Positions 49,201 through 64,000 of a stretch of DNA of 64,000 nt are shown one piece after another. The DNA comes from Mastigocoleus testarum BC008. Lineage in GTDB: Bacteria > Cyanobacteriota > Cyanobacteriia > Cyanobacteriales > Nostocaceae. Position numbers and translations under genes: made by a program. The stretch lies in assembly GCF_001456025.1 (NCBI RefSeq), contig NZ_LMTZ01000001.1:62001-126000 (forward strand), written 5' to 3'. The notes beneath the pieces are model-generated. The model did not search any database. It had not been told where the DNA came from and was given only the letters and a program-made list of their open reading frames with translations. How positions within the stretch are numbered: the first letter of the stretch is position 1; each line of letters starts with the position of its first letter.

Positions 49201-49722
49201 GTGTCAATATTTTGTTTTTATCTAGATATAGTTGTTTGATTCATATATCTAGGTTTAGGTAACTTATTTAGGTTTTGGTGTATATCCCTTTTCCTAATTG
49301 TGTCTAAAGTTTTTTTATACTAATACTTTTTCATTAATTTACTTGGATAATATCTATCTAAGGCAAATTGGGTGTCTTGTTTCTTGCTCTATCTACATTA
49401 AAGGCTTTGCTGGAATAGCTTTAATACTGATTACTGTTTAAAGCTTTCTTCACAAAATTTCAGATCACTTATTGCAGAAAGTGATGCAAGAAAACTAAAT
49501 TCATTCAGTACCGCTGTGACGTCAGGCATAAAACTTGACGCTAAAATATCAATGTTGAGAAATAATACTTCGACATTCTTTAGGCATTTGTAATGTTCTT
49601 CGCAGAGACTAAAGAGAAACTGCTTCTAAATCTGGGTATCGACAAGATATTCCAGTTAAATCCAGTTTAATAACATTTTCTCAGTTAGATTTTTGTGTAA
49701 ACTTCTCACAATTTCAAATCCG

Positions 49723-50229
49723 ATGAAAGAATCTAGTAATAATCTCTATATACCCGAACAGACAACTAAAAAATCTTTAGAAACCTTTAAGGTTTTACCC
49801 CATTTCGTTGGTAGATGGGAAGGAAATTGGGTATGTATGGATGCAGATGCAATAGAGATAAAAAGATTCACGGCGATTTTAAATCAGAACATAGTTGATA
49901 ATCAGTGGGTTCAAACAAATGAAAATTTTTTTGCTGATGGTAAAACAGAGACTCTACACTTCTTTGGTAAACCCATATCTGATGACATAGTTTTTTTAGA
50001 AAGTCCCGATATACCCTATTGTAATTTCAAAATGTTAATTCAAGAATTGTCAGATAATATAATCCTTCTTAGGGTGTGGGATAAACTAACAGGAGCACCT
50101 TTAGCGACTGAAACAATACACTTAATTAGCCTAAATCATAGAGTTAGGACAATTCAACAGTTTAATCCGCCAGATGGTAATCTTCGTGGTTTTATGATAA
50201 TAAATGAAAAAAGAACAAATGATATATAA
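49723..50229 (+). CDS. Calycin/lipocalin-like protein at the edge of the biosynthetic cluster
   Basis: About 168 residues from ATG 49723 (a TTG at 49693 would add ten). The pattern FVGRWEGNWVCMDADAIEI, then alternating strands (HFFGKPISDDIVFLE, ILLRVWDKLTGAP) and the C-terminal RGFMIINEKR suggest an 8-10-stranded barrel with the G-x-W lipocalin start signature. There is no signal peptide, so it is cytoplasmic. It lies 205 bases before the first halogenase-like gene. Such barrels can bind or cyclise lipophilic intermediates; no reaction can be assigned. Confidence 0.6.
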   Translation: MKESSNNLYIPEQTTKKSLETFKVLPHFVGRWEGNWVCMDADAIEIKRFTAILNQNIVDNQWVQTNENFFADGKTETLHFFGKPISDDIVFLESPDIPYCNFKMLIQELSDNIILLRVWDKLTGAPLATETIHLISLNHRVRTIQQFNPPDGNLRGFMIINEKRTNDI

Positions 50230-50434: not shown

Positions 50435-51235
50435 ATGGCTACTATAACTTCTGATTTCTTCACCCTCAATAAAGATTCACTGAAAAACTATCCAGATGCA
50501 ATTAATCAGATATACAGAGGTAATATTGATGGTATTTGTATCAAAAATGTTTTTTCAAAAGAAGATATGCTCAAAGTCAAACATAACCTTGAGAACAAAA
50601 AAGATTATTTGAAAGATTATACTTATACTCAAGGTTATGGTAAGTTTATCGGTGCGATTTTACAAGCGAACACAGATGATAAAACAGCATATTTTAAAGA
50701 TGCTGCAGCTTTAAGAGTGAGATTGAAAAATATTTTCGAACATAGAGACTATGAAACCACAATTCAAGCTGTATTCAGTCAGATATCTGGTGGTAGAGAA
50801 GTTCAAGCAGCCCAAGAAAGCTCTAATAAAGTATACTCTCCAGCCATAACTAGATACACTTCTCCCAGTCAGGGAGGTATCAAAGTACACAAAGGAAATG
50901 AATTTATCGATCATCCAGCTTTTGATGGGTTAAAGCAAGTTGCTAAAGTCAGAAATAGCCTTAGTTATTTCATAGTAGTTGATAAGCCAGAAGATGGTGG
51001 AGAGTTAGTTCTCTATGATGGCTTACCAGACAAATTAACTGTTCCGAAACAGGATTTAGATTTAGATAATTGTCAAAAAAGATCCTTTCAGCCTGATGCT
51101 GGAGATATGACTATTTTTCATGGTGCCACTATATGGCATGCAATTTCTGATGTAAAAGGTAAGAAAAATCGTATAAGCATAGGAGGTTTTGTTGGTTTAT
51201 CAGCAGACGAGCGTAAAGTAGTCTACTGGAGTTAA
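50435..51235 (+). CDS. WelO5-type Fe(II)/2-oxoglutarate enzyme with HxG site, putative halogenase A
   Basis: A 266-residue cupin-fold protein. The metal motif is VHKGNEF: His152 and Gly154, where a hydroxylase would have Asp or Glu. The distal ligand is His235 (IFHGATIWHAISDV), and Arg246 in NRISIGG should bind 2-oxoglutarate. GGELVLYDG and the C-terminal end VVYWS match the WelO5 family. In WelO5 the same Gly opens a site for chloride on iron, so free-substrate C-H halogenation is predicted. The ribosome binding site AAAGGAG is good. A near paralogue follows at 51458. Not seen: any proof of substrate. Confidence 0.8.
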   Translation: MATITSDFFTLNKDSLKNYPDAINQIYRGNIDGICIKNVFSKEDMLKVKHNLENKKDYLKDYTYTQGYGKFIGAILQANTDDKTAYFKDAAALRVRLKNIFEHRDYETTIQAVFSQISGGREVQAAQESSNKVYSPAITRYTSPSQGGIKVHKGNEFIDHPAFDGLKQVAKVRNSLSYFIVVDKPEDGGELVLYDGLPDKLTVPKQDLDLDNCQKRSFQPDAGDMTIFHGATIWHAISDVKGKKNRISIGGFVGLSADERKVVYWS

Positions 51236-51457
51236 TCAGAAACAAACATTCATGCTCTGCATATATATTTCTCATTGTTCCGCTCGAGAAGTTTTTGGTT
51301 CAGATTTTCACTCTTCACTACTTTTTCAATTCTTATAAGTCTCCAATCGAACTGTTTGATAGAGCATGTTCATATCTCATTTTTGAATTTAACTTGCACT
51401 TGAAGAATTTGCTCTTGTTTTAGAATTCCCACTAGATAGTTTATACTTCAAAAAATA

Positions 51458-52282
51458 ATGGAAACTAAATACCAAGAAAATATAGACTTGATAAGTCCAG
51501 AGATAATTGATAGAAAGTGGATTACTCTAAAAACCGACTCTTTAAGCAATTATCCTGATGGGATCAATCAAATTTACAAACATGATATTCATGGGATAAT
51601 TATAAAAGAAGCATTCACTCCAGAAGAAATACTCAAAATAAGTTCAAAAATTAAGCATCGCAAAGATAATAGGAAACGGGAAATTTATGGAGAAACATTA
51701 GGAACTGTTTTAGTAGCAAATAAAGGAGGTGACAAAACCGAATACTTTAGAAATGCAAACATACTAAGAGAAGATTTAAATAATATATTTGAAACCTCAT
51801 TTGAGACTACTATTCAAACGATATGTTCTCAGATCTCAGGAGGAAGAATAGTAGAAGTACCTCAAGAATATAATCAAACGTATACATCAGCTACTATTCG
51901 TTTTGTACATCCAAATCAAGGTGGGATGCCTTTACATAAAGGTAATCAGTTTATTGACGATCCTGCTTACAATCACTTGAAACAAATTGCCAAAATGGTA
52001 AATGGTCTCAGTTATTTCATTGTCATTTCCGAACCTGAAGAAGGAGGCGAACTATTAATCTATTATCCATCACAAGAACAAATGACAATGGCAAGGCAAG
52101 ATTTAGACTTTGACAAAGGTTATAAAAAATACATTAAACTTGCTGCAGGAGATATGCTGTTATTCCAAGGTGGTAACATATGGCATCAGGTGTGTGATGT
52201 TCAAGGGCAAAAGGAGAGAATTACAATCGGAGGTTTTATGGCGATATCTAAATGCGAACGAAAAATTTACTATTGGAGCTAA
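51458..52282 (+). CDS. WelO5-type Fe(II)/2-oxoglutarate enzyme with HxG site, putative halogenase B
   Basis: A 274-residue paralogue of the preceding gene, 222 bases downstream. It has PLHKGNQF (His160, Gly162), distal His243 in GGNIWHQV, and Arg254 in RITIGGF. GGELLIYYP and the end IYYWS match the family. The Asp/Glu is again missing, so it should also be a halogenase. Its N terminus is longer by about eight residues. The two copies differ along the whole length, so duplication is not recent, and distinct sites or substrates are likely (inference). Confidence 0.8.
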   Translation: METKYQENIDLISPEIIDRKWITLKTDSLSNYPDGINQIYKHDIHGIIIKEAFTPEEILKISSKIKHRKDNRKREIYGETLGTVLVANKGGDKTEYFRNANILREDLNNIFETSFETTIQTICSQISGGRIVEVPQEYNQTYTSATIRFVHPNQGGMPLHKGNQFIDDPAYNHLKQIAKMVNGLSYFIVISEPEEGGELLIYYPSQEQMTMARQDLDFDKGYKKYIKLAAGDMLLFQGGNIWHQVCDVQGQKERITIGGFMAISKCERKIYYWS

Positions 52283-52353
52283 CTTAATTATTTGTGGTTC
52301 TTCAGTCTTTGTTATGCCAAACTATTAGTTAAACATCATGAATTGACTTTATC

Positions 52354-52445
52354 AGGACTTACACACGGACAACATAATTACAGTCATTGCGACCTAAGGA
52401 AACAATCCCAAACCACTGAGAATTGATAGCGAGTGCGTAAGTTCT
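52354..52445. mobile_element. Short MITE-like element related to 9340-9664
   Basis: AGGACTTACACAC (52354-52366) and GTGCGTAAGTTCT (52433-52445) are inverted with two mismatches. The interior has GTCATTGCGACC, whose complement also occurs in the 9340 element (GGTCGCAATGAC at 9606-9617). The element is 92 bases long, with no coding sequence. Confidence 0.65.
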
Positions 52446-52601
52446 ATTGATAACGAAAAGTCCAAATACCCAACTTGTGTCAAAAGTCTAAAATGTTAAC
52501 TTAGTAAGTTAAACTTCCTTGCATGGCAAAGGTTCCAGGTTGTTCAATCAATTTCTAGGCACAGTACGTACTGAAGACCCTTGTTTGTCTAGTGATACTA
52601 C

Positions 52602-52688
52602 AGCAGTCCTATTGAATGGGTGAAGATTACTTACCACTGAGAGTCTATTTCAAGGAACTTGACCTTAGTTCTCATGTAGGATTGCTGA
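52602..52688. mobile_element. Diverged MITE-like element, CAGCARTCCTA ends
   Basis: CAGCAGTCCTA (52602-52612) is matched by TAGGATTGCTG (52678-52688), inverted with one mismatch. It resembles the 48095-48232 element ends but is shorter (87 bases). Confidence 0.5.
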
Positions 52689-52801
52689 TTTGCATAAAAT
52701 CTTCATTTTCCAAGAGTGATAAAAGCTGTTTGTGGTTGATAGCATCAAGCATTATGTATAAAAGAAATCATTATGTCTTCTTAGAAGAGGAATAAGCTTA
52801 T

Positions 52802-54427
52802 ATGAGCCTGATTCAACTTCTCTTACGCAAATCCTGGCATACCCTTGCTGTAACAATACTGACTAGTCTGGTCAGTGGTGCCAGTAGCACGGGGTTGATT
52901 GCGATGACTAACAAAGTTTTGAACAGCGGCAAATTGGGGGAGGTAGAAGTTGTAGGAAGTTTCATATATCTCTGCCTACTAATGCTGATTGCAAATATCT
53001 TATCGCAGGTATTAATAGCCAAATTTTCGCAGAGCACTATATTTGACATGAGGGTTCAAATTAGTCGTCGCATTCTTGCTTCTCCCCTTCAGCAGTTAGA
53101 AATGATTGGCGGTCACAGATTACTAGCAACACTGACAAATGACGTTCAATCTGTTTCCACTGCACTATCTGGACTTCCTTCCCTATGTACTAACCTTGCT
53201 ATAGTTATTTGTTGCCTTTTCTACTTAAGTATGCTTTCTTTGAGTGTATTTTTAATAGTAGTAGGATCCATGGCTCTGGGTATTCTCAGTTTACAAGTAA
53301 TAATTGCCAGGGGTAGAAACTTATTTAAATTGGCACGAGAAGAACAAGATCAATTATTCAATCATTTTCGTGCGATCGTTAATGGGATTAAGGAATTAAA
53401 GTTGAACAGCACTCGGCGGCAGACTTTTTTTTATGACGACCTAGTCGCAACAGGAGTTAAATATCGGGAGCATATGATATCTGGTGCAACGTATTTTGCG
53501 ATGGCTTCAAGTTTTGGGCTGCTAACGTTGTTTACAACCATAGGTATACTATTATTCGTTATTCCGAGATTAGTAGAAATAACTCCATCAATCTTATCTG
53601 GTTATGCACTAGTTCTTATTTATATAGTTATACCCCTTAATTCAGTCTTAAACTTTTCCCCAGTTTTGAGTAAAGCTAAAATAGCTTTGGATAAAGTAGA
53701 ATCTCTTGGTCTTGCTTTGGTTCCCCAAGCCAATGAAATGAGTTTTTCAGATTTACGAAATAAACAATTTTCCTCAAATTCAATCAGACTATCTGAAGTT
53801 ACTCATGATTATGGCTGGGAAAAAGATGGAAGTGGTTTTATGCTCGGACCACTTAGTTTATTTGTCAAGCCAGGAGAATTAATTTTTATTATTGGAGGAA
53901 ACGGAAGTGGAAAGTCTACACTTGCTAAACTTTTGACTGGTTTATATGAACCTAAATCCGGACAAATTTATTTTGGAACAGAATGTATAAATACTGAGAA
54001 TAGAGACTCTTATCGTCAATTCTTTTCTACTGTATTCTCAGATTTCTACTTATTTGAGCGTCTGATTGGTTTAGAAGATCCAAATTGCGAGCAGCAAGTT
54101 AACGAATATCTAATTCGGCTGCAACTCGATCACAAAGTCAAAATTTGTGATGGTAAACTTTCAACTACCGCATTATCTCAAGGGCAACGTAAAAGGTTAG
54201 CATTATTAAATGCTTATCTGGAAGATCGTTCAGTTTACTTATTTGATGAATGGGCTGCCGACCAAGATCCAATTTTTAAAGATGTTTTCTATACCCAGCT
54301 TTTGCCAGAACTTCAAGGTAAAGGAAAAACTGTACTTGTTATTAGTCACGACGATCGATATTTTCATATAGCTGATAGAGTAATTAGGTTAGAGGAAGGA
54401 AGATTAAAAGAGAATATCAAAGTTTAG
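52802..54427 (+). CDS. Cyclic-peptide-type ABC exporter (SyrD/PvdE-like), membrane and ATPase domains fused
   Basis: A 541-residue half-transporter. Six membrane helices occupy about residues 15-290. The ATPase follows: Walker A FIIGGNGSGKSTLAKLL, signature LSQGQRKRLALL (Gln for the usual second Gly of LSGGQ), Walker B-like SVYLFDEWAADQDPIF, and switch His in VLVISHDDRYF. This Walker B (DEWAADQDP) is the hallmark of the cyclic-peptide/siderophore-export subfamily. It probably exports the cluster product. It starts after GAGGAATAAGCTT. Confidence 0.88.
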   Translation: MSLIQLLLRKSWHTLAVTILTSLVSGASSTGLIAMTNKVLNSGKLGEVEVVGSFIYLCLLMLIANILSQVLIAKFSQSTIFDMRVQISRRILASPLQQLEMIGGHRLLATLTNDVQSVSTALSGLPSLCTNLAIVICCLFYLSMLSLSVFLIVVGSMALGILSLQVIIARGRNLFKLAREEQDQLFNHFRAIVNGIKELKLNSTRRQTFFYDDLVATGVKYREHMISGATYFAMASSFGLLTLFTTIGILLFVIPRLVEITPSILSGYALVLIYIVIPLNSVLNFSPVLSKAKIALDKVESLGLALVPQANEMSFSDLRNKQFSSNSIRLSEVTHDYGWEKDGSGFMLGPLSLFVKPGELIFIIGGNGSGKSTLAKLLTGLYEPKSGQIYFGTECINTENRDSYRQFFSTVFSDFYLFERLIGLEDPNCEQQVNEYLIRLQLDHKVKICDGKLSTTALSQGQRKRLALLNAYLEDRSVYLFDEWAADQDPIFKDVFYTQLLPELQGKGKTVLVISHDDRYFHIADRVIRLEEGRLKENIKV

Positions 54428-54475
54428 ATTATTAAGTTTTACACGTTCGTATTCGAACTCTTGGGAAATAACTCC

Positions 54476-54624
54476 AGAGGATGTTTTAAAAGTTTCACTA
54501 GGTACAGTTTTACTATTTTGAATTGGCTTTAATTTAATTAATTAAAAATAAATATTTCAAGCTTGTACTTAAATATCTAACAGTCTTAACAAGACAATTA
54601 AAAGACTTTGTTAAAACATCCTCT
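54476..54624. mobile_element. MITE-like element, AGAGGATGTTTTAA ends
   Basis: AGAGGATGTTTTAA (54476-54489) has an exact inverse TTAAAACATCCTCT (54611-54624) across a 149-base segment between the exporter and adaptor genes. There is no coding capacity inside. The perfect 14-bp ends suggest a recent insertion. Confidence 0.7.
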
Positions 54625-54682
54625 AAAATTATACGTACGCGTATTATGCTTAAAATTATGTAAGTACAAAGTTTTATAGACT

Positions 54683-55954
54683 ATGATTTTTAACAGAAAA
54701 AGCCTACAAAAGTATATACCTCAACATTTAATAAAGGTAATTGCTTTCAAAAAAGAATCGGCAGTTAATATAGTTGCGCCTTTAGCTTTGATACTCTTCT
54801 CTTTGCCGTTATATATAATTTTTACAAATATAATTTTTACAGATTCTCAAAAAGCTGTTAAAAATGTTGAAAAAGTTGAAAATAACAAAACTATTTCTCA
54901 AACTCCAAGTATTAGTAAATCAAATATTATTAAGACCAAGGTTTCAGCTCTTGGGCGCATACAACCAAAGAATAAGATTATTACAATATCTGGTTCCTCT
55001 AATTTTCAATATGCAAGAGTAGGTAAGATCTTTATAAAAGAAGGAGATAAGGTTCGCGTCGGTCAAGCAGTTGCAGTTTTAGATAATTTGAATCAGCTAC
55101 AAACAACGCTGGAAGGAGCAAGAAAAGATTTGATGGTTTCTCAAGCAGAACTTAGCCAAGTTAAAGCTGGAGAATCAAAAAAAGCAGAAATCAGTGCTCA
55201 AAAAGCAGCTATTTCAGATCTCAAAGCTGAATTTCAAGGAGAAACTGCAATTCAAGAAGCAAAAATTGCTCGTTTACGAGCAAATTTAAAAATTAACAGA
55301 GCCGAAAGATTACGTTTCCAGCAACTATACCAAAGTGGAGCGATATCAGTTTCCGAACTCGATAGCAAAATTCTTGCAGAAAAAACTGTTCAAGAAGAAC
55401 TGAATGAGGCTCAAGAAACTCGCAAGAAATTGTTGTCAACTTATCCTAAACGAATTACTCAAGCTCAAGCGAATCTAAATAAGCTTAATGAAGTTCGTCC
55501 AGTAGACGTTAAAGTTGCTCAAGCCAAAGTTGAAAAAGCAATGACTCAAGTCAAGATAGCGAAAGCAGATCTTGACTTAGCCTATGTTCGAGCACCTGTA
55601 GACGGTAAGATTCTCAAAATTCATACTTTTGCAGGTGAAAATATCACTGATAAAGGAATTATTGATATAGGTGAAACTGGAAATATGTATGTCATTGCAG
55701 AAGTTTACCAAACTGATATTAGTAAACTTAAAATCGGTCAGAAAGCTATTATTTCTGGTGACGCTTTAAATCACAAGTTTCAAGGAGTTGTAGAGCATAT
55801 TAGCTCTGCAATCGGCAAAAAAGAAGTTTTTAATGATGATCCAATATTAGATATAGATTCTCGAGTTTTTGAAGTCAAAATAAAAATCGATCCAAAATAT
55901 AACCAGGAAGCAGCACAGCTCATAAATCTACAAGTAGATGTCAAAATTTATTGA
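54683..55954 (+). CDS. DevB-type (HlyD-family) membrane fusion protein
   Basis: A 423-residue adaptor. One membrane helix lies near residues 35-55 (LALILFSLPLYIIFTNI), then the lipoyl half-motif with VGKIFIKEGDKVRVGQAVAV, a coiled-coil hairpin (about 140-280), the second half YVRAPVDGKILKIHTFAGEN, and IGETGNMYVIAEVYQTDISK. The pattern is that of cyanobacterial DevB/HlyD proteins, which link a DevC-DevA pump to TolC. The permease follows after 27 bases, but no ATPase of DevA type follows. Confidence 0.88.
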   Translation: MIFNRKSLQKYIPQHLIKVIAFKKESAVNIVAPLALILFSLPLYIIFTNIIFTDSQKAVKNVEKVENNKTISQTPSISKSNIIKTKVSALGRIQPKNKIITISGSSNFQYARVGKIFIKEGDKVRVGQAVAVLDNLNQLQTTLEGARKDLMVSQAELSQVKAGESKKAEISAQKAAISDLKAEFQGETAIQEAKIARLRANLKINRAERLRFQQLYQSGAISVSELDSKILAEKTVQEELNEAQETRKKLLSTYPKRITQAQANLNKLNEVRPVDVKVAQAKVEKAMTQVKIAKADLDLAYVRAPVDGKILKIHTFAGENITDKGIIDIGETGNMYVIAEVYQTDISKLKIGQKAIISGDALNHKFQGVVEHISSAIGKKEVFNDDPILDIDSRVFEVKIKIDPKYNQEAAQLINLQVDVKIY

Positions 55955-55981
55955 ATTTTATAAAACCTAAACAAACTTATT

Positions 55982-57139
55982 ATGATTTATAAAATTCCTA
56001 CTCACTGGCTCCAATTAACTTATCGTAAGGCTCGCCTACTGGTTAGTATTTTAGGTGTAGCTTCTGCTGCAATCCTTATGTTTGTGCAACTTGGTTTTCG
56101 AGATGGACTTTTTGAAACTTCCATATCGATACATAAGCATTTAAAAGCAGATTTAGTTTTACTACATTCTAAAACTGAGTATTTTGAGGGGATGAAGGAA
56201 TTTCCTCTTCGTTTCCTATACCTAGTTTCATCAATAGATGGAGTGGAATCTGTTAGTCCATTTTATTATTCTGAAGGAAATTTTAAAAATCCCGAGAATG
56301 CTAAAACAAAACCAATCACTGTTTATGCGTTTACACCAGAGAAACCTGTTTTCAATTTACCTGAAGTAAATCAACAATTAAATGTACTTACAAAAGCTAA
56401 AACCGTATTGTTTGATCGGCTTTCACGTTCTGAATATGGTCCAATATCCTTAGAGTTTTTAGGTCGGGAATTTTTAACTACTGAATTATCTAATAGAAGA
56501 ATCAGAATTGGTGGTTTGTTCTCTTTAGGAAGTGGTGTATTAGCTTCTGATGGCACCCTGATTATGAGTGATTTGAACTATTCCAAAATATTAGATAAGC
56601 CGTTGGAAAAAGTTCATATGGGTTTACTACAGCTAGAGCCTGGCATAGAGCCAGAAAGTGTCGTTCAAAAACTGTCATTGCAAATACCAGAAAATTTAAA
56701 GTTAATGACTTTAGAAAAATTCATGGAGGAAGAAAAAAAATATTGGATAAGGTCAACACCTATTGGATTTATTTTTAATGCTGGAACAGTAATTGGTTGT
56801 TTTTTTGGAGGAATAATCGTATATCAAATACTTTATACACAAATATCAGATAATTTATACGTCTATGCAATATTTAAGGCTGTTGGGTATTCAAACCATT
56901 ATTTAGTAACAACTGTTATGAAACAGTCTTTTCTGATGTGCGTGATGGGTTATATCCCTGGATTTCTTACCTGTTTGTATTTATATAATTTCATTGGAGG
57001 TGCAACTCGTATGCCCATAACAATGACTTTGAGTCGTGCCGGATTAGTGTTTTTCCTTACTGCTGCTATGTGTTCTTTTGCTGGCATAATATCTATTAAT
57101 AAACTTCGTTCCGCAAATCCAGCAGATCTTTTCCGATAA
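55982..57139 (+). CDS. DevC-type ABC permease
   Basis: A 385-residue permease of the FtsX/MacB fold: one helix at the N terminus (ARLLVSILGVASAAILMFVQ), a large periplasmic domain (about 45-265), and three helices at the C terminus (IGFIFNAGTVIGCFFGGIIV; CVMGYIPGFLTCLYLYNFIG; FFLTAAMCSFAGII), ending RSANPADLFR. DevC-type permeases normally need DevA, but the next 590 bases are non-coding. It may use an ATPase encoded elsewhere. Confidence 0.88.
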   Translation: MIYKIPTHWLQLTYRKARLLVSILGVASAAILMFVQLGFRDGLFETSISIHKHLKADLVLLHSKTEYFEGMKEFPLRFLYLVSSIDGVESVSPFYYSEGNFKNPENAKTKPITVYAFTPEKPVFNLPEVNQQLNVLTKAKTVLFDRLSRSEYGPISLEFLGREFLTTELSNRRIRIGGLFSLGSGVLASDGTLIMSDLNYSKILDKPLEKVHMGLLQLEPGIEPESVVQKLSLQIPENLKLMTLEKFMEEEKKYWIRSTPIGFIFNAGTVIGCFFGGIIVYQILYTQISDNLYVYAIFKAVGYSNHYLVTTVMKQSFLMCVMGYIPGFLTCLYLYNFIGGATRMPITMTLSRAGLVFFLTAAMCSFAGIISINKLRSANPADLFR

Positions 57140-57732
57140 AGATAAAGAATATGCTTATTGACATTTAATTATTTGTATAAATGTTTGTTTATTAATCATA
57201 AGTTGTTTTGACTTATAATAGATATGCATAATAAAATTGAGTTAGATATCAAACATTTCCTGTAGATCAAAAATATATTTACTGGTAAGATTTTTTGATT
57301 TTAATTAGCACAAGTAGATATATTTAATTATTCAAAAGGTACGAGTATTTTGCTCAACACAGATAAATATATCAAATCAATAAAAGATAATTAAGGATTT
57401 ATCATAAATACAGCTCAGTATTTAATATAAAAGTAATAGTTTCAGTGCTATTTAGTTTTTTCAGTTTAACAAATCACCACTTTACTCAATAAAATATTGG
57501 TTTTTATTGTGAAATGGCAAAATTTTTTAAATTAATACAAATAAATCATTCATGAGATATTTAATAATGAATTATCCGAACGAGTAAATGACACATTTCG
57601 TTGAAAGTAAAATCAATAAAGTAATTTTTCTGCATATATTATCGATTTATTTCTAAATAGTTTATTTATTGTTACTTCTTAAATGCAAAGAAGTGTGTTA
57701 ACTAATTTATATTTGACATTCATGGAGGTCTA
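57140..57732. other. AT-rich spacer where devA would be expected
   Basis: About 590 bases with no open frame of useful length and no trace of a Walker motif or LSGGQ that I can see. It should contain the promoter of the downstream biosynthetic operon. The ribosome binding site CATGGAGGTC precedes the ATG at 57733. Confidence 0.5.
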
Positions 57733-58593
57733 ATGGTAGCTACAACATCTGTAAATACTCTCTATAATTTTGTTGAACTTGATATCACCGATCTTGGTCT
57801 TTATCCAGATGGCATTAAAGATATCTGCGAGCGCAAAATAGATGGCTTGATAATACATAATTTCTTCACTCAAAACGAAGTATCCAGTGTTGTTGACAAA
57901 CTAACAAGGAAAGGTGCTTTTCCTGATTCACCATTTGGTGACATCCTGATTTATGGTCCAGCATTGTATGTGTCAGATAAAGATATTGCTCAATATTGCG
58001 AACAAGCAGCACAATTTCGTGATTTCTGCAGCAAACTCTTCAGTGAAGGAAGAGAATTCGAGACTAATTTACAAGAAACATTAAAAGTGATTTCTGGTGG
58101 ACGTCCAGTTGAAGTTCCTCATGCTCCCAACGGTTTACCATATACTCCAACAACAATTCGGGTATTAGAAGAAGAACAATTCATGGGCTGGCACTTTGAA
58201 AATCAGTTTCTGCATTGCACTCCTGGATACCAGCATCTTTTGACCCAGATTGAGCATGAAGATCATTTAAGCTACTTCGCGATGCTCAGCGCTTCAGAAG
58301 TAGGGGGAGATCTTATTCTCTATGATATAGAATGGTCAGACACTGAGTGGCCAGATACTGGAAATAGTGGACGAGAAAGAACAGGCACCGTAGGAGGTAA
58401 ACCAATCCCATCCGTGATGGAAAACTATGACAAAATGTATCTTAATCCATCTCCTGGGGACTTAGTGATTTTTGATGGTGCTCGAATTTTACACCGTGTT
58501 TCTGCTGTAGAAAAAGGTTCCCAGCGCAGAATATCCATAGGCGGATTCTTAGCTTTTTCGAATAATCGTGAAAAACTTTACTACTGGAGTTAA
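57733..58593 (+). CDS. WelO5-family Fe(II)/2-oxoglutarate enzyme with intact HxE site (predicted hydroxylase or desaturase)
   Basis: A 286-residue paralogue of the two HxG enzymes and the one closest overall to WelO5. The motif is WHFENQF with His154 and Glu156, distal His254 (FDGARILHRVS) and Arg266 (RRISIGGF), ending KLYYWS. The Glu should occupy the halide position, so ordinary oxygenation is predicted. An extra segment near 200-235 (WSDTEWPDTGNSGRERTG) lies where WelO5 also has an extended loop. It is translated from a strong ribosome binding site and followed by a hairpin and FAAL. Confidence 0.8.
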   Translation: MVATTSVNTLYNFVELDITDLGLYPDGIKDICERKIDGLIIHNFFTQNEVSSVVDKLTRKGAFPDSPFGDILIYGPALYVSDKDIAQYCEQAAQFRDFCSKLFSEGREFETNLQETLKVISGGRPVEVPHAPNGLPYTPTTIRVLEEEQFMGWHFENQFLHCTPGYQHLLTQIEHEDHLSYFAMLSASEVGGDLILYDIEWSDTEWPDTGNSGRERTGTVGGKPIPSVMENYDKMYLNPSPGDLVIFDGARILHRVSAVEKGSQRRISIGGFLAFSNNREKLYYWS

Positions 58594-58625
58594 TAGCACA
58601 ATACTTATCTAATCCAAAAAAGCTT

Positions 58626-58650
58626 AGAGGCGTTCTATTAGAACGTCTCT
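58626..58650 (+). promoter_or_regulatory. Stem-loop between the HxE enzyme and FAAL genes
   Basis: AGAGGCGTTCT (58626-58636) and AGAACGTCTCT (58640-58650) form an 11-bp stem with one G-U pair and a three-base loop. There is no T-run after it, so it is more likely a processing or stability site, or a weak terminator adjusting expression of FAAL relative to the upstream gene. Confidence 0.45.
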
Positions 58651-58690
58651 AACAGAGAAATACATTACCTTTATTTAGCTAGGTCAAGCT

Positions 58691-60400
58691 ATGTTGGAAG
58701 AAACTTCTAATTTAGTAGAAATTTTAACTAAACGAGCACTCTATCAACCAGAGCAGAGAGCTTACACCTTTATCCAAAATGGAGAGTTGGAGTCGGGTTC
58801 TTTAACTTATCAACAATTGGACAGACAAGCACGGGCAATTGCAGCAAAACTACAAAGCTATGGAGCGGTAGGAAAAAGAGCTCTACTTTTGTATCCACCG
58901 GGCTTAGAATTTATATCAGCCTTTTTCGGATGTTTATATGCTGGAGTTGTTGCTATACCAGCTTATCCCCCTCGCCCGAACCAGTCAATCAACAGACTGA
59001 AGGCTATAGTTACAGATGCACAATCTAGTTTTGCTTTAACTACTACCAATTCTTTGGCCAATATAGAAGATAAATGCGCCCAATATCCAGAGCTAGCTTT
59101 ACTAAATTGGGTCAACACCGATAAAATTGACAATAAATTTGCTGCATCATGGCAGGAACCCAAAGTAAATAATAATACTCTCGCCTTTCTTCAGTATACT
59201 TCAGGGTCTACTGGAATCCCCAAAGGAGTCATGGTAAGCCATGGTAATTTATTACACAATTGTCGCGATCTTGATTTAGGATGGAAGCATACAGAAAACA
59301 GTGTAATCGTTAGCTGGTTACCAACTTTTCATGATATGGGACTCATTTACGGCATTATCGAGCCATTATATAAAGCATGTCCCTGTTATCTAATGTCGCC
59401 ACTATCTTTTGTGATGAAACCTTTTAGATGGTTGCAGGCGATCTCGCGTTATCAAGGGACTCATAGTGGCGCACCAAATTTTGCCTATGAGCTTTGCGTG
59501 CGCAAAATCACACCAGAACAGCGAGCAAGTTTGGACCTCAGTACTTGGTGTATGGCATTAAATGGCTCAGAGCCAGTTAGGGCAGACATTCTTAAGAAGT
59601 TTGCAGAAACTTTCAAGCCTTGTGGTTTTAATCAGAATGCTTTCTGTCCTGGTTACGGATTGGCTGAAGCAACCTTGAAGGTAGCTGCCGTGCGACACAA
59701 TCACGCACCAAATTTATACAGAGTTCGGTCAGATGCACTGCAACAAAATCAAGTTGAAGAAATCACCAGTGAAGATAATAGTCAAATTTTGGTAGGATGT
59801 GGATGGAGTGAAATTGATACTAAGATTGTTATAGTAAATCCTGATACTTTATTAAAGTGTGAGTCTGAAGAAATCGGAGAAATTTGGGTGTCAGGTAAGA
59901 CGGTTGCTCAAGGATACTGGCAGCGACCTGAAGAAACAAAGCATACTTTTCAAGCTTATATTGCAAATACTGGAGAAGGGCCATTTCTACGCACAGGCGA
60001 TCTAGGTTTTATTAGGAATCTCGATCTAATAGTCACAGGACGTCTCAAGGATGTAATTATTATCGAAGGTCGCAATCACTATCCCCAAGATATTGAATTA
60101 ACAGTTGAGGCAAGCCATCCTGGATTGCGTTGTAATTCTGGTGCGGCGTTTACTGTTGAAACTAATGGCAAACAACGCCTAGTTGTCGTTCAGGAAGTAG
60201 AACGAAGTTATTTGCGAGATATTAATATCAAGCAAGTAATTGCAGATATCTGTCAATCTGTAGCAACAGAACACGATCTTCGGATTCATAGAGTGGTATT
60301 AGTCAAAACTGGAAGTATTCCCAAGACTTCTAGTGGCAAAATTCAGCGCAAAGCTTGTCGTGCTAATTTTCTCAACCAAACTTTGGTGCCATTGGGTTAA
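58691..60400 (+). CDS. Fatty acyl-AMP ligase (FAAL)
   Basis: A 569-residue adenylate-forming enzyme. Motifs: YTSGSTGIPKGVMVSHGN (P-loop A3), WLPTFHDMGLIYGIIEPLYK, PGYGLAEATLKVA (A5), and LRTGDLGFIRNLDLIVTGRL then KDVIIIEGRNHYPQDIE, typical of FAAL rather than acyl-CoA ligases. The ligase makes acyl-AMP and passes the acyl group to an ACP. The only carrier in the window is at the C terminus of the next gene, 140 bases downstream, which is the likely acceptor. FAAL genes start lipid-primed polyketide and lipopeptide pathways in cyanobacteria. Confidence 0.93.
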   Translation: MLEETSNLVEILTKRALYQPEQRAYTFIQNGELESGSLTYQQLDRQARAIAAKLQSYGAVGKRALLLYPPGLEFISAFFGCLYAGVVAIPAYPPRPNQSINRLKAIVTDAQSSFALTTTNSLANIEDKCAQYPELALLNWVNTDKIDNKFAASWQEPKVNNNTLAFLQYTSGSTGIPKGVMVSHGNLLHNCRDLDLGWKHTENSVIVSWLPTFHDMGLIYGIIEPLYKACPCYLMSPLSFVMKPFRWLQAISRYQGTHSGAPNFAYELCVRKITPEQRASLDLSTWCMALNGSEPVRADILKKFAETFKPCGFNQNAFCPGYGLAEATLKVAAVRHNHAPNLYRVRSDALQQNQVEEITSEDNSQILVGCGWSEIDTKIVIVNPDTLLKCESEEIGEIWVSGKTVAQGYWQRPEETKHTFQAYIANTGEGPFLRTGDLGFIRNLDLIVTGRLKDVIIIEGRNHYPQDIELTVEASHPGLRCNSGAAFTVETNGKQRLVVVQEVERSYLRDINIKQVIADICQSVATEHDLRIHRVVLVKTGSIPKTSSGKIQRKACRANFLNQTLVPLG

Positions 60401-60540
60401 GTGTAAAAATAACCAGTTATTCAGTTTCAGAGAAACTACAGAGAATTATATAAACATTTTCCAGATAAATATTTTCCAGAACATAAATACTGTAATTACG
60501 AATAAGTATACAAAATTCATATAACAGGAGAAATTAATTT

Positions 60541-62007
60541 ATGCTTACTGATGCTCAAATTAAACACTTCCAAGAAAAGGGATGGGTTGGTCCAATAGAT
60601 ATCTTCTCGCCTGGAGAAATTACTAAAGTCAGAGAATGCTTAGAAAATAATCATAAAATGATAGTAGAAGCCAACGGTCAGGAGATTATGGGTTTCTACA
60701 ATAACGTACTTAATATTGAAACTCCCCGCGACCATCATCTATTTTATGAACCATTAGCAAATATGTTCAGGCATCCCGATCTGATTTCGCGACTAAATCA
60801 GATTGCTGGTTTAGATTTATTGCTTTGGTATACCAATGTGTTTTGTAAAATGCCAGGACAAGGTGAAATAAAATGGCATCAAGCAATAGAGTTTTATACT
60901 TCCAGTGATATTGACTTTGAAAAGAAAACACTGGTTTATTCTCCAGATGATCGAGATCCCGTAAACTTAACAGTATGGGTCGCTTTAGAAGATTCAGACC
61001 GCGAAAATGGCTGCATGCGTTTTGCGAATGGTTCCCATAGGAAAGAATTTGAAATATTACAAGGAAGCATTCCTGCAGAAGAAGGGGTGTTTGCTGGGAT
61101 TAGTGCCCATAAAACTGTTTGGCAAAGAAAGCAAGAATACTCATTATCATACGATTTTGATGAAAATGACTGGGAAATAGAAGAAGTACCCGTAAAAGCA
61201 GGTCAAGTAGTAATTTTTACAGAGAGAGTAATGCATAGTTCTTTGCCAAACCATTCAGATCGACGGCGGATGGCAATTATTGGACGTTATATTCGTCCAC
61301 ATACTAAGGTTTATCCCTATAGACTCAAAGGGGATTTTATTGATGAGAATGGACATAACATCAAAAGACATTTTAATATTTTAGTCTCTGGACGCGATCG
61401 CTATGAATACAATGTTGTTAGAGATAAGCATGATTTAGATGAAACAGAAGTTAAATTTCAAGTTACATCTAATTTGATTCGTTTCGGTCGCGTCGAAATT
61501 CCAGAAGATAAACGTAAGTTAGAGATTTACGGTCTCGAGAAACAGGCCATTGAAGGTGATTGTCAAGAGCAGGAAATAAATCCCATCTTACATCCCCGCA
61601 AGTATATTGAGTGGCAAGCTTGGAATCAATTTAAAGGTATCAGCCGTGAGAAAGCGATGAAAATGTACTGCGAACTTGTAAGTACATTGCCCAGAAAAGA
61701 TACTCAAGTTTCGACAGCTAATAATATTGACGTAGCAAGAAAAGTACGCAAAGGACAATTAACAGTAGCGAGTATTCAAAATTGGTTAACATCTTATTTG
61801 GCTGAGCTATTAGAGATTGACGTTGATGAAATAGAAGAAAATACCCCTTTTGAACGCTATGGTTTATCCTCCTCTGAAGCTATCACTTTGATTAGCGATT
61901 TAGGAGATTGGCTTGGGTGCGAGCTTCCTCCGACCTTATTTTATAGCTACTCGACGATTGGAACTGTGGCTGAATATTTATGCCAAGCTTCGCTAGCAAA
62001 AGTGTAA
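60541..62007 (+). CDS. SyrB2-like non-heme iron enzyme (HxA site) fused to ACBP-like and ACP domains
   Basis: 488 residues in three parts. Part 1 (about 1-300) is PhyH/SyrB2-like: IKWHQAIEFY gives His113 and Ala115 (Ala replaces Asp as in SyrB2), then VNLTVWVALEDSDRENGCMR, distal His232 in ERVMHSSLPNH, and Arg near 241-243. Part 2 (about 303-388) reads like an acyl-CoA-binding protein: YGLEKQAIEGDCQ, then KYIEWQAWNQFKGISREKAM. Part 3 (about 405-482) is an ACP with YGLSSSEAITL, Ser444 for phosphopantetheine. Predicted: halogenation of an acyl chain on its own carrier. The ribosome binding site is ACAGGAGAAA. Confidence 0.82.
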   Translation: MLTDAQIKHFQEKGWVGPIDIFSPGEITKVRECLENNHKMIVEANGQEIMGFYNNVLNIETPRDHHLFYEPLANMFRHPDLISRLNQIAGLDLLLWYTNVFCKMPGQGEIKWHQAIEFYTSSDIDFEKKTLVYSPDDRDPVNLTVWVALEDSDRENGCMRFANGSHRKEFEILQGSIPAEEGVFAGISAHKTVWQRKQEYSLSYDFDENDWEIEEVPVKAGQVVIFTERVMHSSLPNHSDRRRMAIIGRYIRPHTKVYPYRLKGDFIDENGHNIKRHFNILVSGRDRYEYNVVRDKHDLDETEVKFQVTSNLIRFGRVEIPEDKRKLEIYGLEKQAIEGDCQEQEINPILHPRKYIEWQAWNQFKGISREKAMKMYCELVSTLPRKDTQVSTANNIDVARKVRKGQLTVASIQNWLTSYLAELLEIDVDEIEENTPFERYGLSSSEAITLISDLGDWLGCELPPTLFYSYSTIGTVAEYLCQASLAKV

Positions 62008-62025: not shown

Positions 62026-64000
62026 ATGGAATCGATCGCAATTATAGGTTTAGGCTGCCGTTTCCCTGATGCTAATAATCCAGAAGCATTTTGGAACTTG
62101 CTGGAGAAGGGAACAGATGCCATATCTGAAGTTCCCCCCGAACGCTTTGACATAGATAGATTTTACGATTTAGAGCAGGGAAAACCGGGAAAAATGAATA
62201 CCCGTTGGGGGGGTTTTTTACGAGATGTAGATTCTTTTGATGCTGAGTTTTTTAATATTTCTCCCCGGGAAGCAGAGCATATGGATCCCCAGCAACGATT
62301 GCTGCAAGAAGTTGCTTGGGGGGCTTTAGAAGATGCTGGGATTGCTCCATACAATTTATCAGGTACCGATACAGGTGTTTTTATTGGCATCGGTAACACA
62401 GATTATACAAGGATTCTATGTAAGAATATAGATAATATAGATGCTTATAATGCTACTGGTGGAGCTCTAAGTATTGCCGCGAATCGTCTATCTTATCACT
62501 TAAATCTTAAGGGACCCAGTATTGGTCTAGAAACTGCCTGTTCTTCATCTTTAGTCGCAGTTCACCTAGCTTGTCAGAGTTTGCGGAGTGGAGAATCTAA
62601 TCTAGTTATTGCTGGTGGGGTGAATCTCGTTTTATCCCCAGATATGACCGTCACTTTCTCTCAAGCACGGATGATGTCTCCTGATGGTCGTTGTAAAACT
62701 TTTGATGCTAGTGCTAATGGTTATGTGCGCGGAGAGGGCTGTGGTGTAATCATTCTTAAACGCCTATCAGATGCTGTAAAAGATAAAAATCGGATTCTGG
62801 CATTGATTAGAGGTTCGGCAATTAATCAAGACGGTTTGAGTAATGGACTTACCGCCCCCAATGCATTAGCTCAACAAGCCGTTATTCGTAAAGCTTTAGA
62901 GAATGCCAAAGTTGAACCCGCACAAATTAGTTATATCGAAGCTCATGGTACCGGTACGACTTTGGGAGATCCAATAGAAATTGCTTCCATTAAGGCAGTT
63001 TTAATGGAGAATCGTTCCCAGGAGCAACCTTGTGGTATTGGTTCGGTAAAAACTAATATTGGTCATTTAGAAGCCGCTGCCGGAATAGCTGGAATCATCA
63101 AAGTGGTGCTATCTTTGCAACATAAAAAAATTCCACCACATCTTCATCTCAAACAACTGAATCCTTACATTTCTTTGGAAGAAACTCCGATGTTTATTCC
63201 AAAATTCCAGCAGCCCTGGAGTTGTCAGGGAACTCGCTTCGCGGGAGTAAGTGGTTTTAGTTTTGGTGGTACGAATTGCCATATAATTTTGCAAGAGGCA
63301 CCCTTAGAAAATCAAATAAGAGCAAGCACTGAGCGTCCTTTAAATGTTTTGGCACTTTCAGCAAAAACGAAAGAAGCACTAAAACAGCTAGCCCAAAAAT
63401 ATGAAAACTTCTTGGCTTCCAATCCAGAAGTATCTCTAGCAGATGTTTGTTTTACTGCCAATGTAGGACGATCGCATTTTACTCATCGTTTGGCGATCGT
63501 ATCAAAATCAATACCACAATTGGGCCAAAAGTTAAAAGCTTTTACTTCGCAGCAAGAAAATATCGATTCATGCAAGTATAAAACCAATAGTCGAAAGCCA
63601 CCGAAGATAGCTTTTTTATTTACTGGTCAGGGATCTCAGTATTTGGGAATGGGAAGTCAACTCTATCAAACCCAACCAGTTTTCCGCGAAACCATAGACT
63701 ATTGTGATCGCATTTTACGTCCTTACCTAAAAATACCTTTGCTGGAAGTTTTATATCCTGAGAAAACAGAAAATTCCAACTTTTCAGCAATCAATGAGAC
63801 CGTATACACCCAACCAGCTTTATTTGCCTTTGAATACGCACTTTACCAGTTATGGAAATCCTGGGGGATTGAACCAAATGCAGCGATCGGTCACAGTGTT
63901 GGTGAATATGTTGCTGCTTGCATTGCAGGAGTATTTAGTTTAGAAGATGGTTTAAAGCTAATTGCTTCTCGGGCTAGTTTAATGCAAGACTTACCCCGAA
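62026..64000 (+). CDS. Type I polyketide synthase, N-terminal KS-AT part (cut by window end)
   Basis: Frame open from ATG 62026 (AAGAGGAG upstream) through the window edge: 658 codons visible. The ketosynthase has [15 protein letters not shown], active Cys172 in [14 protein letters not shown], His307 in EAHGTGT and His347 in [12 protein letters not shown] linker leads to an acyltransferase with [12 protein letters not shown] and nucleophile Ser624 in [11 protein letters not shown]. The specificity-determining part of AT lies past the edge. It starts 18 bases after the fusion gene, so they are co-transcribed. It should extend the halogenated fatty acyl-ACP. Confidence 0.95.

What the first reader, a model, noticed from the sequence alone, without database searches (positions are those of the whole stretch)
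50435..62007. Three predicted iron/2-oxoglutarate halogenases of two lineages in one FAAL-PKS cluster
Two WelO5-type proteins carry HKG at the metal site (H152/G154 and H160/G162), and a SyrB2-like protein carries HQA (H113/A115). In both families, loss of the Asp/Glu ligand is what lets chloride bind iron. WelO5 itself acts on free substrates and SyrB2 on carrier-bound ones, so the cluster may halogenate at both stages. I know of no described pathway with this combination next to FAAL and PKS, though I cannot search.
Basis: partly seen in the sequence, partly recalled or inferred. Interest (0 to 1): 0.93.

Follow-up and report, generated by a model that had tools for sequence, protein, structure and literature searches.

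The report
Four-enzyme halogenation cassette in cyanobacteria
A cyanobacterial gene cluster carries four proteins of two iron-enzyme families, three with the metal site typical of chlorine-adding enzymes and one that keeps the oxygen-adding type, beside genes predicted to build a fatty peptide; the same set recurs in six other cyanobacterial genomes next to lanthipeptide-type genes, so it likely makes an undescribed chlorinated product and would offer natural pairs for testing how such enzymes switch chemistry.

Summary

The cluster runs past the window to about 88.9 kb. WelA/WelB-type genes, WelC, FAAL, HctB-like, PKS and NRPS genes recur in all 7 genomes found with this HxA class; 9 genomes with other HctB-like hits have no WelC.

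Two results reach further. (1) The syntenic WelC gene changed between HxE and HxG at least twice (one-clade tree rejected, p-AU 0.0056), each time with Gly at 189 and Asp at 254. (2) In all 6 relatives the cluster also holds a class II LanM and a Nif11-leader-like precursor; the window lacks both.

No chemistry is shown anywhere. Human AspH, also lacking the carboxylate, showed no halogenase activity, so HxG alone is not proof.

The parts
49693..50229 (+). DUF3598-like small protein, accessory gene of the conserved cluster
   Evidence: PF12204 26 bits against cut-off 22, a partial match; 47-60% identical homologues in the clusters of Fischerella, Trichodesmium, G172 and G778, not found in the Roholtiella and Nostoc MAG stretches examined
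50435..51235 (+). WelA: WelO5-family Fe/2OG protein, HxG, predicted halogenase
50888..50896 (+). codons H152-K153-G154 of WelA (metal site without carboxylate)
51458..52282 (+). WelB: WelO5-family Fe/2OG protein, HxG, predicted halogenase
   Evidence: PF22814 271.7 bits; WelO5 5j4r E 8.3e-33; not modelled
51935..51943 (+). codons H160-K161-G162 of WelB
52802..54427 (+). ABC exporter, cyclic peptide export family (TIGR01194)
   Evidence: 503.9 bits against cut-off 286.2
54683..55954 (+). DevB-family membrane fusion protein
   Evidence: TIGR02971 320.6 bits against 129
55982..57139 (+). DevC permease (an ABC ATPase of the DevA kind lies outside the window at window-scale 87089-87799)
   Evidence: TIGR01185 366.8 bits against 290.35; ATPase position and PF00005 match; its DevA assignment is by context
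57733..58593 (+).
   Evidence: PF22814 375.9 bits; HFE aligned to WelO5 HVG
58192..58200 (+). codons H154-F155-E156 of WelC
58691..60400 (+). FAAL, fatty acyl-AMP ligase
   Evidence: PF00501 214.2 bits, PF23024 53.2 bits; FAAL models of NCBIfam among the best hits, below their cut-offs
60541..62007 (+). HctB-like three-domain protein: PhyH/halogenase (HxA) - ACBP - ACP
   Evidence: PF05721, PF00887, PF00550; CytC3 E 7.9e-25, SyrB2 E 6.2e-24
60877..60885 (+). codons H113-Q114-A115 of the HctB-like protein
62026..64000 (+). PKS gene, first part; the whole gene runs to window-scale 69525 and encodes KS-AT-ACP-aminotransferase-MT-C

Best explanation
A conserved FAAL-PKS-NRPS cluster carries one HctB-like HxA-ACBP-ACP protein and three WelO5-family proteins (two HxG, one HxE), and is predicted to build a beta-amino lipopeptide whose acyl chain would be chlorinated on the HctB-like protein's own carrier, while the two HxG proteins would likely halogenate a later NRPS-side intermediate and the HxE protein would likely hydroxylate the acyl part. 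Shown from sequence: the four proteins, their metal-site residues, the WelO5 fold of the WelA model, the domain order of the FAAL, HctB-like, PKS and NRPS genes, and the recurrence of the set in seven genomes. Inferred: FAAL loads a free fatty acid onto the C-terminal ACP of the HctB-like protein; chloride fills the site left by Ala115; the PKS adds one unit and its aminotransferase leaves a beta-amino group; the Asp-type module, TauD-type oxygenase, racemase and two further A domains add the peptide; the TE releases it; the SyrD-like and DevBCA exporters carry it out. WelA and WelB keep the Ser that corresponds to WelO5 S189 and have Gly at 254, as WelO5 does, which favours halogenation over hydroxylation by analogy.
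For: Sites and folds. Domains of the continuation. Recurrence: 7 of 7 genomes with the three-domain HxA class have WelC (in G778 split between two frames) and WelA/WelB-type genes, against 0 of the 9 other genomes with HctB-like hits having WelC. The last A-domain pocket is alike in 6 of 6 relatives and the Asp-type pocket is read in 4 of 6. Gene order: WelC-FAAL-HctB-PKS on one strand in 7 of 7; WelB directly before the first NRPS gene on one strand in 4 of 6 relatives, with TauD between in a fifth. HctB acts on ACP-bound hexanoyl (PMC6218459, PMC8407142, passages). S189A in WelO5 gives equal hydroxylation and chlorination (PMC5350257, passage), and WelA and WelB keep that Ser.
Against: AspH lacks the carboxylate and showed no halogenase activity (PMC6817910, passage). 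HctB itself has Val at this place and also gave vinyl chloride and ketone (PMC6218459), so other outcomes are open. TIGR01762 is below its cut-off for the HxA protein. WelB has HxN in 3 of 6 relatives (Fischerella and two Nostoc), which need not halogenate. The Asp-type pocket is different in Fischerella and was not found in Roholtiella. No product, expression or assay is known. Where WelA and WelB act is read from gene order alone; in the window itself they stand next to exporters, not next to the NRPS, and in G172 LanM lies between them and the NRPS.
Confidence: 0.58

Rival explanations
1. The halogen is cryptic: the enzymes chlorinate, but the chlorine is lost in a later step (elimination, cyclisation), so the final product is not halogenated.
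For: CurA, CmaB, KtzD and JamE are cryptic halogenases (PMC8407142, passage); several halogenase-type proteins in one path would suit stepwise dehydrohalogenation.
Against: No enoyl-CoA hydratase or enoyl reductase of the curacin kind is among the Pfam matches listed for the cluster; three small or uncharacterised proteins (DUF3598-like, DUF6817, KamA-like) could still do other chemistry.
Confidence: 0.2
2. Two-His sites without halogenase activity: WelA and WelB are oxygenases (hydroxylation, desaturation) of the AspH type, and only the HctB-like protein halogenates.
For: AspH precedent (PMC6817910); WelB varies between HxG and HxN among relatives; in one WelA relative (L045) Glu stands at 254 with Gly at 189.
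Against: Window WelA and WelB have Ser189 and Gly254 like WelO5; within the family HxD occurs in other clades, so the carboxylate was available and is absent here.
Confidence: 0.25
3. The cluster is half of a hybrid: the lipopeptide is joined to a class II lanthipeptide, and the WelO5-type enzymes act on that ribosomal peptide.
For: LanM and a Nif11-leader-like precursor in 6 of 6 relatives, the precursor always between WelA and WelC.
Against: The window keeps WelA, WelB, WelC and the HctB-like gene but has neither LanM nor precursor in 142 kb, and no such precursor in its whole assembly, so the four enzymes do not need the ribosomal peptide there.
Confidence: 0.15
4. The product is a beta-hydroxyaspartate lipopeptide siderophore of the cyanochelin kind that happens to be halogenated.
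For: FAAL, PKS, an Asp-type A domain and TauD-type oxygenases with HxE; cyanochelin B has FAAL, PKS, NRPS and an Asp beta-hydroxylase (PMC12628792, passages).
Against: Only one Asp-type A domain; no TauD hit in the DNA examined of the Fischerella and the two Nostoc clusters.
Confidence: 0.15

Closest known systems
Hectochlorin (hct) pathway and its halogenase HctB
   Same: FAAL-type loading, a three-domain halogenase protein with acyl-CoA-binding and ACP parts, Glu four residues before the distal His, then PKS/NRPS (PMC6218459 and PMC4558948, passages)
   Different: HctB has Val113 where this has Ala115; the window's clade and the HctB-numbered HxV clade are separate. No WelO5-family protein is mentioned in the passages seen; PKS aminotransferase and different NRPS here
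WelO5 / AmbO5 / WelO5* alkaloid halogenases
   Same: Family PF22814, fold, two His, Gly at 166, Ser at 189 in WelA and WelB
   Different: 31% identity for WelA; separate clades in the tree; here beside FAAL/PKS/NRPS; WelC keeps Glu. In Fischerella sp. PCC 9431 WelO5 itself lies about 11.7 kb beyond the PKS of this cluster
SyrB2 / CytC3 carrier-dependent halogenases
   Same: H-x-A site and PhyH-type sequence match
   Different: Those act on amino acids on separate carriers (PMC8407142, passage); here a carrier is fused
Puwainaphycin / microginin FAAL-PKS-aminotransferase clusters
   Same: FAAL start, beta-amino acyl peptides (PMC4219810, search listing and abstract start only; aminotransferase and domain order recalled)
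   Different: CylC-type dimetal halogenases are named for clusters similar to these (PMC8406957, passages), not Fe/2OG ones
Lipolanthines and other lipidated ribosomal peptides (recalled, no paper read)
   Same: Lanthipeptide and fatty acid/PKS genes in one cluster, as in the six relatives
   Different: Recalled lipolanthines use class III synthetases; the relatives here have class II LanM, Nif11-like leader, FAAL, NRPS and four Fe/2OG proteins. The window lacks the ribosomal half
DAH, plant halogenase beside its HxD paralogue
   Same: HxG and carboxylate-bearing paralogues side by side, switch traced on a tree (PMC12346261, passages)
   Different: Plant, one switch; here at least two switches in one syntenic bacterial gene

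Membership tests
WelO5 family (PF22814) | Profile match over the curated cut-off | tested here: met
   269.8, 271.7 and 375.9 bits against 27 for WelA, WelB, WelC
WelO5 family (PF22814) | Fold of WelO5 | tested here: met
WelO5-type halogenase | Gly in place of Asp/Glu at 166 | tested here: met
   WelA G154 and WelB G162
WelO5-type halogenase (WelC) | Gly in place of Asp/Glu at 166 | tested here: not met
   Window WelC has E156: family member, not filed as a halogenase
WelO5-type halogenase | Chlorinates a free substrate | not testable with these tools
   needs enzyme assay
HctB-type halogenase | Three-domain build with halogenase, acyl-CoA-binding and ACP parts | tested here: met
   PF05721, PF00887, PF00550 in that order; three-domain build of HctB from PMC6218459
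HctB-type halogenase | Glu223 four residues before the distal His, and Arg245 | tested here: met
   E228/H232 and R249 aligned; Glu kept in all 62 rows of the tree
HctB-type halogenase | Val113 at the carboxylate place, as in HctB itself | tested here: not met
   Ala115; separate clade. Filed as HctB-like, not as HctB
HctB-type halogenase | Chlorinates an ACP-bound fatty acyl chain | not testable with these tools
   needs enzyme assay
Cyanochelin-type siderophore cluster | Asp-type A domain with Asp beta-hydroxylase | tested here: inconclusive
   pocket letters read by hand from recalled positions; TauD-type proteins with HNE; substrate not tested
Lanthipeptide hybrid (for the relatives) | LanM synthetase and precursor inside the cluster | tested here: met
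   6 of 6 relatives by homology; two LanM scanned, 921.7 and 931.7 bits against 304; Nif11 matches of the five precursors scanned are weak and under cut-off
Lanthipeptide hybrid (for the window) | LanM synthetase and precursor inside the cluster | tested here: not met
   no hit in 142 kb; in G000 LanM only on C33 and C34 at 41%, precursor none

The most novel reading that the evidence does not exclude
The window is the ribosome-free member of an undescribed family of clusters that join a class II, Nif11-led lanthipeptide to a halogenated FAAL-PKS-NRPS lipopeptide, and its WelC gene is a natural switch: the same syntenic enzyme has moved between hydroxylase (HxE) and halogenase (HxG) at least twice with one repeated set of second-site changes (189 and 254, with 186).
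Probability: 0.33. Interest if true: 0.88.

Novelty: new variant of a known kind. Interest (0 to 1): 0.74.

Why it matters
What makes an Fe/2OG enzyme chlorinate rather than hydroxylate is a long-standing question, usually met by mutating single enzymes. Here one gene at one place in a conserved cluster exists in both forms, with the same accompanying changes arising on separate branches: a natural paired experiment. The cluster also predicts an undescribed product family in named cyanobacterial strains (Fischerella sp. PCC 9431, Roholtiella LEGE 12411) and in a Trichodesmium MAG, and places WelO5-type proteins next to fatty-acid loading, where they are not described in the papers searched.

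Tried and rejected
Chance motif: rejected, since the motifs sit at the aligned metal site in full-length family matches. 'The HxA protein is HctB': rejected as stated, since HctB has Val113 and the window's clade is separate from the HxV clade with HctB's numbering. 'The set is unique to this window': rejected. Frameshift between NRPS genes at 80.1 kb: rejected, since the second gene has its own TubC docking domain. One origin of all HxG WelC: rejected by AU test, p 0.0056, though the fork that places P0097 is 96/85 and only 80/50, and P0097 is one metagenome protein on a 1,333-base contig. WelO5 from inside WelC: not supported, as the two form separate clades that group together (98/92; midpoint root).

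Led nowhere: the named scan with window WelC alone found nothing (the alignment scan found five loci). Plasmid searches with the HctB-like protein and WelC found no match. The distance of residue 254 to iron could not be measured because model coordinates were not in the Python box, so whether Asp254 of HxG WelC replaces the lost Glu as iron ligand stays open. A-domain pockets were read by hand from recalled GrsA positions; an epimerisation-type domain was called from a recalled motif. Aranazole cluster considered and set aside: thiazole-containing. No antiSMASH, MIBiG or subscription papers at hand.

Rows dropped: of the proteins, P0125, P0126 and P0128 were not put into; one search left out twelve more rows (P0124, P0127, P0011, P0012, P0103-P0105 and five distant proteins). 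Against my reading: P0127, a dropped 173-residue HxE fragment, has Thr at 186, so the loss of Asp186 is not confined to HxG; its 189 and 254 are as in other HxE rows. All nine HxG WelC proteins seen have Asp at 254, P0124 and P0128 included. For the HctB tree, eight fragments or partial rows of P0016-P0085 were left out, and P0086-P0094 (the HxD rows) were not used.

Full report

2. A third WelO5-family protein, WelC (57733-58593), lies inside the range and has the highest family score, 375.9 bits, but its site is H154-F-E156: the carboxylate is kept. HctB itself, however, has Val113 between His111 and His227. In the alignment (79 proteins plus the window's own again, 80 rows) the site reads HxA in 44, HxV in 22, HxD in 9, HxY in 3, and is missing in 2. 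In a tree of 62 of them the window sits in a clade of 31 rows, all HxA; Moorena proteins with HctB's numbering offset by one sit in a clade of 13 rows, all HxV (quick method; numbering). HxA also occurs outside the window's clade (P0041, P0072, P0074, P0082-P0085), and the fewest changes at the site are five. Glu223, which PMC6218459 says is not conserved in most reported halogenases and found only in HctB, is present in all 62 rows. So the protein is HctB-like, of a different clade.

3. The cluster. The window is G000:C1:62001-126000 of a 312-kb contig; the assembly is 12.7 Mb with 37.5% contamination, so I do not name the organism. Beyond the window the cluster runs on: PKS KS-AT-ACP-aminotransferase-MT-C to 69525, DUF6817, TauD-type oxygenase, an NRPS with A, T and three condensation-type domains, Asp/Glu racemase, A-T, TubC-C-A-T-TE, a KamA-like radical-SAM protein (my reading of its sequence; Pfam gave no match), a second TauD-type oxygenase, an ABC ATPase of the DevA kind by context, and an ACP-bearing protein at about 88.9 kb. 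Exporters inside the window: TIGR01194, DevB and DevC. By recalled pocket positions the first A domain reads DLTKIGHVGK (Asp-type) and the last DASTIAAVCK (Phe/Tyr-like).

4. Recurrence. PF22814 passes its cut-off in 13 of 386 sampled cyanobacterial genomes. All seven have WelC, FAAL, HctB-like, PKS with aminotransferase and methyltransferase-type domains, hits to the three NRPS A domains (the first only 39% identical in Roholtiella), the racemase, and WelA/WelB-type genes; for the Nostoc MAG the contig ends inside the PKS, so its aminotransferase could not be seen. In Trichodesmium a WelB-like gene lies before the NRPS and a decayed copy beside WelA. Genes of G778, WelC among them, are split between frames. 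The Asp-type pocket is read in G172, G778, the Nostoc MAG and Trichodesmium, differs in Fischerella and was not found in Roholtiella; the last pocket is alike in 6 of 6. The named-locus scan also gave a short contig titled Burkholderia multivorans with WelC and FAAL, too short for more. The nine other genomes have no WelC: six have no PF22814 match, G644 has two weak ones (42.5 and 41.1 bits), G486 one (26.5), and G360 a lone HVG protein on another contig. Seven contig lengths are shared by WelC and HxA proteins (19388, 68781, 19237, 34575, 213854, 58270, 1422190); this is suggestive only.

5. A natural switch. Of 38 WelC rows in the alignment, 29 are HxE and 9 HxG. All 9 HxG rows have Asp at WelO5 position 254, Gly at 189 and no Asp at 186; of the 29 HxE rows 0, 1 and 1 do. 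In the 33 rows used for the tree it is 8 of 8 against 0, 1 and 0 of 25. With columns 166, 189 and 254 left out, the HxG rows fall in two places: P0097 near the window's WelC, and a clade with Trichodesmium beside HxE sequences. Holding all HxG rows in one clade is rejected, p-AU 0.0056; the fewest changes are two. S189A in WelO5 gives equal hydroxylation and chlorination (PMC5350257, passage), so the loss of Ser in HxG WelC with gain of a carboxylate at 254 could mean a moved ligand rather than halogenation. I could not measure distances. For WelA and WelB of the window this doubt does not arise: both have Gly at 254 and Ser at 189. One WelA-type relative (L045) shows Gly189 and Glu254 as well.

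6. A ribosomal half in the relatives. In 6 of 6 relatives a gene of about 105 codons lies between WelA and WelC; the five aligned have a conserved end D-[ST]-[YF]-C-[SN]-[ST]-[ST]-C-H-x-G. These five match the Nif11 leader models weakly: Pfam E 7.2e-5 to 0.021 and NCBIfam E 2.7e-5 to 0.019, all below the cut-offs. A class II LanM lies in the same cluster in all six, 55-58% identical to the G172 copy, which was the query; the two scanned score 921.7 and 931.7 bits against 304. In four of the six (Fischerella, G778, Roholtiella, Nostoc MAG) LanM directly follows the NRPS-TE gene on the same strand. The window's cluster has neither: none in 142 kb, no precursor in the assembly, LanM only on two other contigs at 41%. 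The window instead has the TIGR01194 and Dev exporters, for which the relatives' cluster DNA gave no hit (two generic ATPase hits of 28-34% lie farther off in G172). Because the four oxygenase/halogenase genes persist without the ribosomal half, their substrates most likely lie on the PKS/NRPS side.

7. WelO5's own neighbourhood. In Fischerella sp. PCC 9431, which PMC4558948 equates with H. welwitschii UTEX B1830 (passage), a fourth PF22814 gene lies at 6305473-6306303. Its product has H164, G166, S189 and H259 at native numbers and reads like the PDB chain printed: WelO5. It is about 11.7 kb beyond the end of this cluster's PKS gene and 22.5 kb from WelC. In the tree the WelO5-type HVG proteins group with WelC (98/92).

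8. Literature. Ten searches of an open-licence library listed no paper that, by title, abstract start or the passages I opened, describes WelO5-type proteins with FAAL or HctB-type proteins. PMC8406957 (passages) surveyed cyanobacterial halogenases with WelO5 and HctB among its queries. PMC4558948 (passages) lists orphan NRPS/PKS clusters of Subsection V cyanobacteria, one with asparagine synthase and racemase, and counts LanM genes under bacteriocins; that this orphan is the cluster described here is my inference. PMC11837247 (passages) lists FAAL clusters, hectochlorin among them; WelO5 and lanthipeptides do not occur in its text. Papers were seen as passages or search listings only.

9. Verdict. 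Observation confirmed and enlarged; interpretation partly supported; new variant of a known kind. Halogenation is predicted, not shown.

Noticed in passing
L081:14-3205, L040:4282-7602, L082:201-3482; G778, G628, G637: A class II LanM lies inside all six related clusters but not in the window's.
   Followed up: yes
L040:10638-10946, L044:9525-9848, L045:9182-9493, L046:9523-9846, L047:6482-6802: Nif11-leader-like precursor with two conserved Cys between WelA and WelC in every relative; absent from the window's assembly.
   Followed up: partly
L080:1471-2343 (Fischerella sp. PCC 9431): WelO5 itself sits about 11.7 kb beyond the end of this cluster's PKS gene.
   Followed up: partly
P0049-P0078: HctB-like proteins with HxV (HctB's own residue), with HxY, and some with a TubC docking domain instead of the ACP; what HxY does is unknown.
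   Followed up: partly
L044, L046 and L107 (WelB): WelB has HxN instead of HxG in Fischerella and two Nostoc genomes.
   Followed up: no
L045:7274-8071 (WelA of Roholtiella): HRG with Gly189 and Glu254, the same pairing as in HxG WelC.
   Followed up: no
G778:C3:6643000-6682999: Several genes of this cluster (WelC, FAAL, PKS, an NRPS) are split between frames; not mended.
   Followed up: no
G672:C257:4499-4787 (Trichodesmium): Decayed WelO5-family copy next to WelA; an intact WelB-like gene with HTG lies between TauD and the NRPS.
   Followed up: partly
L089, L090, L092, L094 (G750, G681, G748, G745): WelO5-type HVG proteins in genomes without the HctB-like protein, three of them in one genus code shared with the Nostoc MAG; role unknown.
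   Followed up: no
G000 contigs C33 and C34: Two contigs carry LanM genes of the same score at nearly the same coordinates, which fits the 37.5% contamination figure of the assembly.
   Followed up: no
L048 (record titled Burkholderia multivorans WS-FJ9, 4,477-base contig): WelC (HxE) and FAAL on a short contig outside cyanobacteria.
   Followed up: no
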